Source: Dactylonectria macrodidyma
Taxonomy: Eukaryota; Ascomycota; Sordariomycetes; Hypocreales; Nectriaceae
Direction: 5' to 3'
DNA length: 64,000 bases
NCBI GenBank assembly: GCA_020744425.1
Contig: JAGMUV010000004.1
Span: 3,658,001 to 3,722,000, forward strand
The notes beneath the pieces are model-generated. The model searched no databases. It worked only from the letters and a program-made list of their open reading frames with translations, and was not told the origin of the DNA. The stretch's first letter is position 1, and the number at the start of each line of letters is the position of its first letter. Position numbers and translations under genes: made by a program. Below are positions 1-24,507 of this stretch, in pieces.

Positions 1-879
1 TGTTGCGCTTCTGACCTGCGAGGGCGCTACTGTGGTTACGGGCTTCTCAGCAGGGCTTTTGTCGTTATCCAGGTTTGGCTTGGCTTGCGCTGAAGGTACT
101 GCTCCTGACTGAGCGTCTGGTAATGTGATAGAAGCCTGGGAAATGGTGTTTTCAGACCGGATTGAAGTGTTGCCTTGGCGATGCCTCCTGTACAAAATTC
201 GTTTTCGTCGAAGAAGCATTGCTTGAGCAAGCCTTTTCCGGATAGTTTCGCTAATACCCGGGAACCAGTCGCCAGTGTGATGTTCAAAATGGCTGATCAG
301 GAGTGGCTCGACGTCCCTGTCCTCGTCATCTTTGATTTGGAAATCGCTCGCTTTGAGAACTTGAGTTTCTTTGCTGGCCCGACGAATTGTGTTCGAGATC
401 TTATTGAGACCAGTGATCTCAGTGGCGATGTTAAGAAAGGATTGTCCCAGCCTATCGTTCACGACGCTAGAGGCATCTATTTTCGAAGATTCTGCCAGCG
501 TAGCCAGGGCATTCGAGCCTATAAACGTCAGCCAAATTTGTTCGAGACTAGAGGATAGAGACCAAGGCAGGACAAGCCGAAAGTGAAACCCACAGGTCTG
601 AACGCGGTAGTTCAGGGACTCCAGCAAACCAGTCACGACACTCTGAACTTCTGACGCGAATCGTAGACGATGATCCATGGACGCTGACCCTGGAGCAAAC
701 ACTCCAATGCTAGTAGCCCAGCTAGAGAATCTCGCAAGTTGGTCCTCCACCATAGACAGCTCCCGCGGATGGACTGAAGACGCCCGGAAGAGGCATTGCT
801 GGAAAGATTCCAGGCACTGGTTGGCCGAGGCGGCCACGGTCGGCCCTTTGAGCTCTGGACTGCGGTCCGAGTCCACCAT
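1..879 (-). CDS. Fungal C2H2-associated N-terminal domain protein (partial, runs off left edge)
   Basis: An uninterrupted minus-strand frame of 293 codons runs from ATG 879 off the left edge. The codon at 900-898 is an in-frame TGA, seven codons upstream, which fixes the start. The product resembles the large fungal family often labelled 'oxidoreductase acuF-like C2H2-type zinc-finger' proteins. Recognisable pieces are an early Cys/Phe-rich helix (around residues 20-30), the WATSIGVFAPG..SMDHRLR segment (about 61-80), a VTGLLESLNYR helix (about 88-98), and a basic RKR..RRKRILYRRHRQ stretch (about 221-242). In that family the basic stretch precedes C2H2 fingers. The fingers themselves would lie beyond this window, so they are not seen. 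No signal peptide or membrane segment is visible. It is divergent from the DUF7580-subtilisin gene, with a ~650 bp shared promoter. Function unknown; family assignment is by pattern memory. Confidence 0.72.
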   Translation of the reverse strand, partial: MVDSDRSPELKGPTVAASANQCLESFQQCLFRASSVHPRELSMVEDQLARFSSWATSIGVFAPGSASMDHRLRFASEVQSVVTGLLESLNYRVQTCGFHFRLVLPWSLSSSLEQIWLTFIGSNALATLAESSKIDASSVVNDRLGQSFLNIATEITGLNKISNTIRRASKETQVLKASDFQIKDDEDRDVEPLLISHFEHHTGDWFPGISETIRKRLAQAMLLRRKRILYRRHRQGNTSIRSENTISQASITLPDAQSGAVPSAQAKPNLDNDKSPAEKPVTTVAPSQVRSAT

Positions 880-1526: not shown

Positions 1527-4500
1527 ATGGCCATATCCTCGGCCGCGAAAGACGGGGGCGGGAACGAAGACCTGCTCCTCGACACGGTCGGAACAGTCCT
1601 GCAGATGGCCAAAATAGCTCGAATCAACGAGACCAACGAAGAGGCCAAGGTCTTTTATAGTCACCTGAGCTTACACTGCTTCAGGCTACAAGAACACTTG
1701 ACGCGCTCGCGGCAGGCTTTGTCTCACCTCAATGGGGAACTGGTCGCTCAGGCTCTGGGCCACCTCGGATCCTTAGTTCCCGAGAGTGGTCTTCATGAAC
1801 TCCCGACATATCCTGTCACGCTAGAGTTCCGGCTCAAGATGCTTTACCTCTACTGGGACGAGGCGAGAAGGCGGCATGACGAGGCAGAACTCGAATTCAT
1901 CCGCCGGTGGTTGAGGCCGGGGGTTTCCGAAGAACAGAGACACGAGGTGGACAAGGCGCTAGAAATTTGTGCGGACAAGCTTGACAAGCAACAGCCCGAG
2001 CAACCTTTTTTGAAATCCATTCACAAACTCACATCTCCTGAGATTGGTGAGCCGCCATATGCCGTCTGCAAGGCAGCCAAGTCCATCTTCGATGCATTGA
2101 TGGACTGCAAGGGTTGTTCATGCCCCGACCAGCATGATTTCAAGGCTAAACTCGAATTGGGAACCTACCGGGGCGCTGCGAAGAAGCCTCTTGTCAAACC
2201 TCTTCGAAGACGGGTTCGGAGAGGGCGTTGCGATGATGATGACGCCGGGGGCATTGAGTTAGACATGTTCCTCTCCATGGAGCGAGATTGGCACGAGGTT
2301 CGCGTCCAGACCGTCAAAGAGAGAGTCGTCCGATTCGACGCTCCAGTTAAGGAGGTGTTCTCTCGTGGTGGTAGCATTGTCGAGCAGTACGCAAAGGTGG
2401 AGAGGCTATGCAGGCCAATTACGAAGACGAAGACGAAGGCATTACAGCGACTTATCCTGAGGCTGAACAGTGGCCAACTCTTCGAGATAGGGTTTGAGAA
2501 GAGCAACTTTCAAATCGACCATGCCGCCGAACCAATCTCTTTATCGCAATGTTTCGAAGACCGACAAGACTTCTTTACAGAGAAGACAAAGCGGATCCTT
2601 TCCCTGATCATCGGCTACACCGTTCTCCATCTTCACGGAACTTCATGGCTCCAGCCGGGGTGGGGTTCGTCAAATATCAAGTTCTTCCAGACCACGTCCT
2701 GCAAGACTCCATTGCGACCGTTTATCGAAGCCCAGCTGCCCAAGGCTAGTCCCTCTGGCCAAGCCCATGATTTTCAATCCATCGAGAACCATCCGGATGA
2801 CGATGATGGCATGTCGGATGAGCTAGATTCAGGGCATTGCTTTCCAGAAGTGGTTGCCCTGGCCGTTGTCCTGATGGAGGTGTATTTCGCCAAACCGTTC
2901 AAAAGACTAGCCGCATTGCACGATATCCAACTGATCGAGACTCAGAGCGGCCGCATTACCCTCATGGATGTGGACCAGGTGTTCGAGGGGTATGAGGAAA
3001 ACGAGGAAGGATGGCGATCCCAGATCCCCGAAGACTCCCCTCTTCTGGAGGCCATCGACAACTGCCTGGACGCGGAATTATGGGAAGATGATGAAGGGCA
3101 GCCCCTCGATAGTGCAACGCTGAGGTCGCTGATATATCAAAAGATCGTTCGGCCACTAGAGCTTCACCTCACGAACGGGTTCAGCAACATCCAGCTGGAT
3201 GGCGTCGACCAATATGCCAGGAATCTAGACTTTGGGAAATGGGGCCAACCCATATCTAGCCAAGAGTCAGACGGCCGTTCAGCTCTGTTATGCCCGCGGG
3301 AGGCCATGCCTATTCGCTCTCCGTCCCCAGCGGCGTTTACACTGCTTTCGCCAGGCCAGTTTGCCATTAGGGCTCATGGTTGGAGATATATGCATCAAGC
3401 TTCACGCCTGCAGTCTTTCGTCTCTTCTTCGACATCGGATATGGATTCGATGTCAAACCCCGACGTTGAATACAAGGCCTTCCAGTTCTTTGACGATGAG
3501 ATTGGCGATGATGAGCATTCTGCGGTAGAGTAAGTCCTGACTTGTAGTATCGCGGTCACCTTCTGGCACCTATGACTGTTGATGCCCGAGATCCACTACT
3601 AATACTACCAACCCTAGAACCGAGAAGTACATGAGATGGAGAGCCGAGTACGAGAAGGTTTACAAGAAATTCATCAGTAGCTACCTTCGAGGTCCTCCGT
3701 TACAACCAGTGAAAATTGCGATTCTAGATACAGGCATCGACAGAGACCATTTCGTCTTCGAAGCTCGCGAGGATAACCTGAAAGGCAAGCGAAACTGTTA
3801 TAACGAATCCCAGAAGAACGTACCAGATTCCCATGGACATGGGACCTTTACCGCAAGCCTCATTCTGGATTATGCTCCAGATGCCGCTCTCTATGTTATC
3901 AAAATCGCAGACAAGGAGAATGCAAGACCAGACGCCAAGATCGTGGTGAATGTAAGTAGCAGGGCTGTCTCTACTTTGTCAGAATACTCATCTTGATGCA
4001 CACAGGCGATCAACCACGCTGTTGACAAATGGGACGTCGACATCATCTCCATGTCGTTTGGGTGGCCGTCCTCCGACTTTGATGGCTACGACGCCCTCCA
4101 AGCTGCCATCGACAAGGCAATCTCCAAGAAGGTGCTCATGTTTGCCGCTGCCGCCAACTCCGGCGGCCGACTAGGCCGGGCGTACCCTGCCAGCAGCTCG
4201 CAGGTCATCTGTGTCCACTCAACAAATACAAACGGAAGCGCGTCCGACTTCAGCCCGACCGCCGAGCCCAATGCCATTAACATTGCGACGGTCGGCGAGT
4301 CGGTGCTGTCGGCGTGGCCGATGCTGCTCTGCCAAGACAGGCTGAACCTCAACCCACAGTGCGTAAAGTCCCGGTCCGGCACGTCGTATGCGACGCCCAT
4401 TGTTGCTGGAATTGCGGCGTTTTTGCTGCAGTATGCGCGTCTGCATCTCTCGGAGAGCGAGGCTCTGGCGCTGAAGCGGAGGGAGAAGATGGAGGCCTTG

Positions 4501-4644
4501 CTGAGGAGGTGTGCTGTGCGAGGGCCGAGTTACCAGCCTAGGGATGGATATTTCTACCTTCATCTGGGTTTGGATAAGCACAATCTATTTGGAGGGGAGT
4601 TGGACTGGGTCAGTTATGAGATATCGAGGGCATTGAAGACATAG
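1527..4644 (+). CDS. DUF7580-subtilisin (peptidase S8) fusion, candidate gasdermin-activating protease
   Basis: Three exons (1527-3529, 3618-3951, 4006-4644) give 991 aa. Both introns (88 and 54 nt) have GTAAGT donors and clean AG acceptors, and the frame is kept. Residues ~1-600 match the fungal DUF7580 region: a helical N-terminus, a FEIGF..ISLSQCF core, LHLHGTSWLQPGW near 370, and a kinase-like EVVALAVVLMEVYF helix. Residues ~700-935 are a subtilisin domain with the full triad: Asp705 in AILDTGID, His742 in HGHGT, Ser906 in SGTSYATP, plus oxyanion Asn830 in AAANSGG. There is no signal peptide or propeptide, so it should act in the cytosol rather than as a secreted digestive protease. Fungal S8 proteins of this kind are partners of gasdermin-like proteins (the HET-Q2/HET-Q1 system of Podospora), and a gasdermin-like gene ends 108 bp away. 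Zymogen control by the DUF7580 part is inference. Confidence 0.88.
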
Positions 4645-4752
4645 CAAGCATCTTTGGAAACACTGTGCAATGTAGTTCCTCAGAATCAACTACCTTCACC
4701 CTCACGCCTACTTCAAGCGACAAAAGACCAGTCGTAGGTGTTCTTCTGCTTG

Positions 4753-5654
4753 CTACCAGTCGTCAGGGTCTTCTTCCCTTGGGATAGCGCAGAAAACCAC
4801 TTCCTCATCATCCATCAGCTTCTCAGCGTCAAACCCTTCAACCTGCGCATCCGGCTCTTCAACCTTGAGTACAGACAGTTCCGGGCCTTTGAACTCATCC
4901 CTTTCATTGCCGTACATGGCTCCCTTGCGGTATTCCTCCTCGCTCACGACCTGGCCCACCGCTTCGCCCACCCAAACCTTGCTCACACGAAATGCAAATA
5001 CAAAGTCGCTGCTGCCCTCCCATTTTGTACTTACTTTGTTGCCTAACTTGCCCTCCACTCCGGGACCACCGCTGATCGGAACAGCGCCCGCGGGCCGCAT
5101 GGTAGCGTCTACTTGAACACTAACAGTGCCACCCACGGTACGAGACTTGAGCGTGTTGGCTTCAGCGCCTGTGACAACCTTGAGACCCGTTATGATGTAG
5201 ACGGGCTTGCGGTAGCGAGAGAGTTCCAGAAAGCGACGGACGTTATCGGCTTCGATACATGTCTGGAGATAAGGTGGCGTTGGGATGAATTGCGTAGTCT
5301 CGAGGGTTTCAAAGATAAACGTCTCCTCGTCACTAACGCCGTGAACACCCAGTGTGCTAGCAAAGGTGTGAGCACCCACCTCCTGTCAATTTCGGCGCCA
5401 ATATCGATGCTAAACCCGAGAACGCTGAGGAACTTTGTCAAGATAGAGAACTTCCCGCGCCGCAGCTTCTCCTTGGTATACTGGACGCTCTTCTTCTCTG
5501 TCTTGAAGACGTCGGAGTCCTCCGGCGGCGGAGAGCAGAAGAGGGGCCGCTGGGGGTTCTTGACTGACGTGATGACATTGCCCAGCTTGATTGGACCGCC
5601 AGGCGGGAAATCCCAGGTCGGAGCGAAGAAGAAGAAGAACTCTCGGTTGGCCAT
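4753..5654 (-). CDS. Gasdermin-like pore-forming cell-death protein (RCD-1/HET-Q1 family)
   Basis: Two exons (5654-5380 and 5332-4753) are joined by a 47-nt GTGGGT..TTAG intron and give 284 aa, close to the ~260-280 aa of fungal gasdermins. No signal peptide is present. The order of elements follows a gasdermin N-domain: a hydrophobic FFFFF start, a PGGPIKLGNVITS strand, a basic KEKLRRGKFS helix (about 60-69), then PVYIITGLKVVTGAE, a Gly/Ser-rich VGGTVSVQV strand, and FVFAFRVSKVWV closing the fold near residue 212. In animal and fungal gasdermins the same 'ΦYΦΦT..Φ' and 'ΦAFRV..Φ' strands flank the beta-hairpin that inserts in membranes. The last ~70 residues are strongly acidic and could be the removable inhibitory tail known from HET-Q1. 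It is convergent with a subtilisin gene, the typical fungal context. It could instead be an uncharacterised fungal family of similar pattern; a structure prediction would settle this. Confidence 0.72.
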
Positions 5655-24435: not shown

Positions 24436-24507
24436 TCTTCCGTAGTATAGTGGTCAGTATGCAAGCTTGTCACGCTTGAGACCCGGGTTCAATTCCCGGC
24501 GGGAGAG
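24436..24507 (+). tRNA. tRNA-Asp (GTC)
   Basis: A full cloverleaf can be drawn. The acceptor stem TCTTCCG pairs with CGGGAGA (one G-T pair). The anticodon stem CAAGC/GCTTG encloses loop TTGTCAC with anticodon GTC. The T-stem CCGGG/CCCGG encloses TTCAATT. The A-box-like TAGTATAGTGG starts at 24443 and the B-box GGTTCAATTCC is at 24486-24496. No intron. T-runs suited to RNA polymerase III termination follow at 24542-24560. Confidence 0.95.

What the first reader, a model, noticed from the sequence alone, without database searches (positions are those of the whole stretch)
1527..5654. Convergent subtilisin-gasdermin cassette: a two-gene pore-forming cell-death switch
Seen: a DUF7580-S8 protein with an intact catalytic triad and no secretion signal, ending 108 bp from a 284-aa protein that follows the strand order and hallmark segments of gasdermin N-domains and ends in an acidic ~70-aa tail. 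Known: in Podospora, HET-Q2 (subtilisin) cleaves the tail of HET-Q1 (gasdermin), and fungal gasdermin genes commonly neighbour protease genes. Inference: this pair is such a cassette, with DUF7580 as the sensing/regulatory part of the protease.
Basis: partly seen in the sequence, partly recalled or inferred. Interest (0 to 1): 0.92.

Follow-up and report, generated by a model that had tools for sequence, protein, structure and literature searches.

The report
Fungal gasdermin–protease self-killing gene cluster
A soil and plant-root fungus carries, side by side, a gene for a membrane-pore-forming 'gasdermin' and a gene for a protein-cutting enzyme that probably switches it on; such pairs are already known in fungi, but here the enzyme carries a poorly known kinase-like module, and a third, sensor-like gene recurs near most of the fungus's other gasdermin genes too.

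Summary

Gasdermin/S8 ('Q2L') clusters are known: reviews put ~80% of ~1900 fungal gasdermin genes beside a protease. The pair is a new member of that kind.

(2) DUF7580 is modelled, with modest confidence, as a degenerate kinase-like fold. (3) The module is fused to a nucleoside-phosphorylase domain in two separate places of its tree. (4) A third, Pfam-unassigned C2H2-like gene, with WD40/ANK/TPR repeats in some copies, lies in divergent orientation near all 9 (8 within 4 kb).

Most likely: sensor, pseudokinase-gated subtilase, cut of the acidic tail, pores, cell death. Cleavage, pores and sensor role are inferred. The third gene's co-divergence fails without one close paralogue, and it was tested in one genome only.

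The parts
1527..4644 (+). DUF7580-Peptidase_S8 protein, 991 aa (exons 1527-3529, 3618-3951, 4006-4644)
   Evidence: (100% identical to P0121)
1557..2108 (+). codons for residues 11-194: predicted helical bundle at the N-terminus of the protease protein
   Evidence: AlphaFold2 model, (ten-residue pLDDT means mostly 67-94, but 38 around residues 161-170)
2232..3173 (+). DUF7580 (residues 236-549); modelled as a degenerate kinase-like domain (residues about 182-554)
3709..4503 (+). subtilase (S8) domain, residues 699-945, spanning intron 2 (3952-4005); D705, H742, S906 and N830
4753..5654 (-). fungal gasdermin, 284 aa (exons 5654-5380, 5332-4753)
   Evidence: (100% identical to P0001)
4879..4917 (-). 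codons for residues 231-243 of the gasdermin: least conserved stretch measured, proposed cut region
   Evidence: column identity 0.45; pore domain 0.65-0.71; rest of the tail 0.52; 231-239 pLDDT <50, as are 82-94, 152-195 and other stretches. Cut site itself inferred
4756..4917 (-). acidic C-terminal tail of the gasdermin (residues 231-284, net charge -14), proposed inhibitory piece
   Evidence: part of it modelled as strands
1..879 (-). 5' part of the third gene, divergent to the protease gene (647 bp between the two start codons); its open frames continue beyond the left edge of the window to about G000:C34:3655071

Best explanation
This is a gasdermin cell-death cassette of the fungal HET-Q1/Q2-like (Q2L) kind. 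At rest the 284-aa gasdermin is held inactive by its acidic C-terminal tail. The cytosolic subtilase is held in check by the module in front of it: a helical bundle and DUF7580, which looks like a kinase fold that has lost its catalytic residues. When a non-self or stress signal is perceived, perhaps by the third, divergently transcribed C2H2-like protein, the DUF7580 module releases or clusters the subtilase. The subtilase then cuts the gasdermin in the poorly conserved linker around residues 231-243, and the freed pore domain oligomerises in the plasma membrane and kills the hyphal compartment. Shown here: homology, gasdermin fold, catalytic residues, conserved adjacency, co-divergence of gasdermin and protease paralogues, a recurrent third gene nearby. 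Inferred: the cut, the pore, the kinase-like nature and regulatory role of DUF7580, the third gene as sensor.
For: Gasdermin. Subtilase with its catalytic residues. Tail acidic in 45 of 45 and linker least conserved. Adjacent in relatives (16 of 18 S8 rows with comparable sequential tags differ by 1; 38 of 80 S8 rows, two of them from this genome, share a contig length with a gasdermin row). Own genome: 9 of 10 gasdermin loci beside DUF7580-S8. Co-divergence of paired paralogues within one genome: r 0.884, 0 of 20,000 permutations; 0.830 and again 0 of 20,000 without the closest paralogue. Third gene in divergent orientation near the protease gene at 9 of 9 gasdermin-linked loci, 8 within 4 kb, one at 11.8 kb, measured between matched domains. 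Reviews describe cleavage of HET-Q1 by HET-Q2 and the clustering of fungal gasdermins with S8 genes.
Against: No experiment. The phenylalanine at residue 239, near the position of the HET-Q1 cut, is not conserved in the relatives shown. The gasdermin model is only moderately confident (mean pLDDT 66). One gasdermin locus (C67) has no DUF7580 or S8 match nearby, and two DUF7580-S8 loci (L013, L014) have no gasdermin in the fetched 10 kb. The third gene's C2H2-like module does not co-diverge with the S8 paralogues once C23 is left out (r 0.001), and some relatives of it lie far from any DUF7580 match.
Confidence: 0.85

Rival explanations
1. The gasdermin is activated without cleavage, as reported for RCD-1 (meeting of two allelic variants after hyphal fusion); the neighbouring subtilase does something else, for instance destroys or processes another partner.
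For: The closest solved relative by sequence and fold is RCD-1, which according to the review works by co-expression of two alleles and not by cleavage.
Against: The adjacency is conserved, 9 of 10 gasdermin loci of the genome are protease-linked and the paralogue pairs co-diverge; an acidic tail is kept in 45 of 45 relatives.
Confidence: 0.12
2. The third gene is the true sensor and DUF7580-S8 is an adaptor-protease, so that the functional unit has three genes, comparable to sensor - caspase - gasdermin in animals. (This refines the best explanation and does not exclude it.)
For: 19 of 34 DUF7580 matches in the genome have a C2H2-type locus within 15 kb, 18 of these 19 in divergent orientation; 9 of 9 gasdermin-linked loci. 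WD40, Sel1/TPR or ANK repeats in the same open frame as the module at C14, C9b and C1a.
Against: No co-divergence with S8 beyond the window/C23 pair. Seen in one genome only. No repeats found by Pfam in the window's own copy. At C9b the gasdermin gene lies between it and the protease gene; at C56 it is 11.8 kb away. Divergent genes may only share a promoter.
Confidence: 0.4
3. The adjacent NACHT gene at about 10868-7650 (-) is the sensor of this cassette.
For: NPHP3_N E 4e-25 and NACHT E 2e-6; it is the next recognisable gene on the gasdermin's strand.
Against: Among 11 tag prefixes found in both tables (compared by eye) no NACHT relative has a tag next to the gasdermin's. The C23 paralogue cluster has a HET-domain gene on that side instead. 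The NACHT relatives compared are only 39-47% identical, so this is a weak test.
Confidence: 0.05
4. Chance neighbours: a gasdermin relative and an unrelated subtilase that happen to converge.
For: None found.
Against: Per-gene chance of a DUF7580 match within 10 kb is about 0.9% if positions are uniform, 9 of 10 observed; 16 of 18 tag pairs adjacent.
Confidence: 0.01

Closest known systems
HET-Q1/HET-Q2 of Podospora anserina (gasdermin and S8 subtilase, heterokaryon incompatibility)
   Same: Gasdermin of similar length (278 against 284 aa), short C-terminal tail, S8 subtilase partner; HET-Q1 structure 9uv9 matched by profile.
   Different: HET-Q2 has 388 aa and the two genes are idiomorphs at one locus; here both genes sit together in one genome and the protease has a long helical-bundle + DUF7580 front part.
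fungal gasdermin / Q2L two-gene clusters (Clave et al. 2022, known here only through reviews PMC10197012, PMC10989679, PMC12881547)
   Same: S8 protease gene within 10 kb of a gasdermin gene; protease multidomain; one review mentions fusions to repeats and to 'other predicted kinase-like domains'.
   Different: The DUF7580 name, its fusion also to PNP_UDP_1, and the recurrent C2H2-type gene were not seen in the passages read.
RCD-1-1/RCD-1-2 of Neurospora crassa
   Same: Nearest solved structures by sequence and fold.
   Different: Reported to be activated by co-expression of two alleles, not by proteolysis.
MLKL (helical bundle + pseudokinase)
   Different: rmsd 18.2, so the two domains are not superposed together; no HeLo-type Pfam family among those matched by 40 members at E up to 1; here an S8 protease follows.

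Membership tests
fungal gasdermin (fGSDM) | sequence homology to RCD-1/HET-Q1 | tested here: met
   E 4e-9; 2.5e-16 and 5e-7
fungal gasdermin (fGSDM) | gasdermin N-domain fold | tested here: met
fungal gasdermin (fGSDM) | short C-terminal tail that inhibits until removed | tested here: inconclusive
   acidic tail present in 45 of 45 relatives; inhibition not testable
fungal gasdermin (fGSDM) | forms membrane pores and kills | not testable with these tools
   needs expression
HET-Q2-like (Q2L) protease | S8 or CHAT protease domain with catalytic residues | tested here: met
HET-Q2-like (Q2L) protease | gene within 10 kb of a fungal gasdermin gene | tested here: met
   108 bp
HET-Q2-like (Q2L) protease | cytosolic (no secretion signal) | tested here: inconclusive
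   N-terminus inspected by eye only (one search prints it)
HET-Q2-like (Q2L) protease | cleaves the gasdermin tail | not testable with these tools
   -
protein-kinase-like fold (DUF7580) | two-lobed kinase fold | tested here: inconclusive
pseudokinase (DUF7580) | loss of catalytic Asp of the HRD stretch (motif recalled) | tested here: inconclusive
   no conserved Asp at residues 370-383 in 66 sequences (the most frequent are D in 12 at 371 and in 12 at 383); residue equivalence rests on a model of modest confidence
MLKL / HeLo family | 4-helix HeLo-type bundle related to MLKL | tested here: inconclusive
NLR (NACHT) receptor, for the third gene | NACHT domain in the same protein | tested here: inconclusive
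   none in the window copy; a NACHT-ANK frame lies directly after the C2H2-type frame at C1c, and it was not settled whether it is the same gene

The most novel reading that the evidence does not exclude
DUF7580 is an MLKL-like pseudokinase sensor/switch module of fungal immunity that works as one half of a divergent gene pair with a C2H2/repeat receptor. The pair is a general chassis whose effector end is exchanged: a subtilase that fires a linked gasdermin in some copies, a nucleoside-phosphorylase-type enzyme in others. The gasdermin cassette in the window would then be one plug-in of a three-gene, inflammasome-like system (sensor, pseudokinase-protease, gasdermin).
Probability: 0.35. Interest if true: 0.8.

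Novelty: new variant of a known kind. Interest (0 to 1): 0.55.

Why it matters
The review read names the stimuli and the regulation of the proteases that control fungal gasdermins as open. In this genome one architecture, DUF7580-S8, accounts for all nine protease-linked gasdermin loci found, and it comes with a recurrent third gene. That makes the question concrete: which part senses, and does the kinase-like part gate the protease? The nine co-diverging pairs in one genome also give a ready set for testing whether each protease cuts only its own gasdermin.

Tried and rejected
NACHT gene as a third cassette member: no tag adjacency in 11 shared tag prefixes, compared by eye, so disfavoured. 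Co-divergence of the third gene: r 0.562 (p 0.012) with S8 and 0.733 (p 0.004) with gasdermin, but 0.001 (p 0.49) and 0.35 (p 0.04) without C23, so it is not claimed. HeLo or protein-kinase families by Pfam in 40 DUF7580 proteins at E up to 1: none among the 16 families matched, apart from one member's inositol-polyphosphate-kinase hit at E 0.003. CHAT proteases beside the gasdermins: none of 49 CHAT matches lies within 10 kb of one of the 10 gasdermin loci; the nearest is about 22 kb away, on C56 (compared by eye). Gasdermin relatives in viral contigs: none confirmed. Pfam gave no family for the gasdermin at E up to 1, and none above its cut-off for the third gene's conserved part. 33 of 120 rows lack an S8 or PNP annotation; most are about as long as exon 1 alone (563-710 aa, two longer) and come from metagenome sources, 7 from annotated genomes; they are probably cut at the intron, so they are not taken as a separate architecture (one, P0175, has a sub-threshold S8 hit). 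No HeLo-type solved structure was seen apart from MLKL itself, which says little.

Full report
WHAT IS THERE. The window belongs to Dactylonectria macrodidyma (Hypocreales; the order is recalled), contig C34 at 3658001-3722000 of the assembly. On the plus strand a three-exon gene (1527-3529, 3618-3951, 4006-4644) encodes 991 aa, and on the minus strand a two-exon gene (5654-5380, 5332-4753) encodes 284 aa. Both equal public proteins over their full length. The stops are 108 bp apart, so the genes converge.

CONSERVATION OF THE PAIR. Of the 120 listed protease relatives, 80 have S8, 7 have PNP_UDP_1 and 33 have neither. Of the 80, 38 (two of them from this genome) share their longest-contig length with one of the 120 listed gasdermin relatives; of the 33, 3 do, and of the 7, none. 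For long contigs this is weaker than adjacency, and each row stands for a 90% cluster. Of 22 pairs with the same sequential tag prefix (tags with DRAFT left out), 16 differ by exactly 1. All 16 are S8-type, out of 18 S8-type pairs; the 4 pairs without S8 annotation are not adjacent. The 16 span Fusarium, Monosporascus, Hypoxylon, Cudoniella, Neonectria, Scytalidium, Xylaria, Trichoderma and Purpureocillium (names).

THE SAME GENOME. Ten gasdermin loci were found (12 matches; the search scores only the best candidates, so counts are lower bounds). Nine have a DUF7580 match within 5.5 kb (chance about 0.9% per gene within 10 kb if positions are uniform). Eight of these have a clear S8 match on the DUF7580 strand, and the ninth (C9:1365308) has a weaker S8 match (E 4e-5). 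The tenth (C67) has neither nearby. Two further DUF7580-S8 loci (L013, L014) have no gasdermin in the fetched 10 kb. Across the nine pairs the gasdermin and S8 distances correlate at r 0.884 (0 of 20,000 permutations reach it), and at 0.830 (again 0) without C23. This is within one genome, so shared species history does not explain it; duplication as a block does, and that is what a unit predicts.

EFFECTOR EXCHANGE. Seven of the 120 rows carry PNP_UDP_1 in place of S8, and Pfam finds it in the 7 of them scanned (of 40 proteins). A tree of 34 S8 and 7 PNP proteins over the shared front part puts the PNP forms in two separate places among S8 forms, as strongly supported branches require. The genome of the window has one such fusion too (C17). 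Which effector is older cannot be said without a root.

THE THIRD GENE. An all-against-all comparison of open frames around the loci showed a third family. In the window it is the gene at 879 down to beyond position 1, divergent to the protease with 647 bp between the start codons. It has an N-terminal part without Pfam family and a C2H2-like module, and at other loci repeats in the same open frame: WD40 at C14, Sel1/TPR at C9b, ANK at C1a. The window's copy has no recognised repeats. Three searches with such frames gave the 28 loci counted, two of which match outside the module. 19 of the 28 lie within 15 kb of a DUF7580 match (17 within 6 kb; 1.4% expected per locus if positions are uniform); 9 do not. 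Of the 19 DUF7580 loci concerned, 18 are divergent to it. All 9 gasdermin-linked DUF7580-S8 loci have it, 8 within 4 kb and one at 11.8 kb between matched domains. At C9b the gasdermin gene lies between it and the protease gene, and at C1a it lies between protease and gasdermin (coordinates). The three query loci are themselves among the 19, and queries taken from DUF7580 neighbours favour such copies, so the rate is an upper estimate; a search with the N-terminal part also met relatives far from DUF7580 (for example C1:191162 and C56:3090929). The third gene's distances do not follow those of S8 once C23 is left out. Whether it recurs in other species could not be tested.

WHAT IS KNOWN. I saw passages of PMC12881547, PMC10197012, PMC10989679, PMC9815663 and PMC12258605, and section 20 of the first. 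Clave et al. 2022 is not held. [quoted passage not shown] The pair is therefore a member of a known kind, and the kinase-like fusion may be among those already seen. The DUF7580 label, its exchange between S8 and PNP, and the C2H2-type gene were not in the passages seen. My searches cover one open-licence library and listings only, so this is not a claim of absence from print.

VERDICT. As a gasdermin cassette it is expected in such a fungus. The added value is the dominance of one architecture in this genome, its co-diverging pairs, its exchangeable effector end and the recurrent third gene.

Noticed in passing
window about 10868-7650 (-): NACHT/NPHP3_N NLR gene (P0241, EDB81DRAFT_925251) beyond the gasdermin on the same strand.
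   Followed up: partly
L018:7158-9158 (-): HET-domain gene near the paralogous gasdermin/DUF7580-S8 cluster on C23.
   Followed up: no
L024:2699-4717 (-) and P0172, P0173, P0177, P0178, P0187, P0189, P0204: DUF7580 fused to PNP_UDP_1 instead of S8; the own-genome copy also has the divergent C2H2-type gene.
   Followed up: partly
L015:4561-5484 (-): Gasdermin on C67 with no S8 or DUF7580 match nearby.
   Followed up: partly
L016:4213-5175 (+): Gasdermin match at C9:1365308 holds an in-frame stop (intron or broken gene, not decided; described only).
   Followed up: no
L013 and L014: Two DUF7580-S8 loci without a recognisable gasdermin within the fetched 10 kb; their target is unknown.
   Followed up: partly
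L028:5369-8800 (-): Third-gene copy at C14 with many WD40 repeats (21 matched stretches), recalling the repeats of known incompatibility receptors (recalled).
   Followed up: no
L025:5572-8160 (-), residues 586-862: C-terminal part of the window's third gene is 54-57% identical to frames on C12, C8 and C35; nature unknown.
   Followed up: no
L030:5199-9632 (-): 1478-codon open frame with the C2H2-like module at one end and a DUF3384 match (E 1e-63) at the other; one gene or two in frame was not decided.
   Followed up: no
window 24436-24507 (+): tRNA gene (Rfam RF00005, 64 bits).
   Followed up: no
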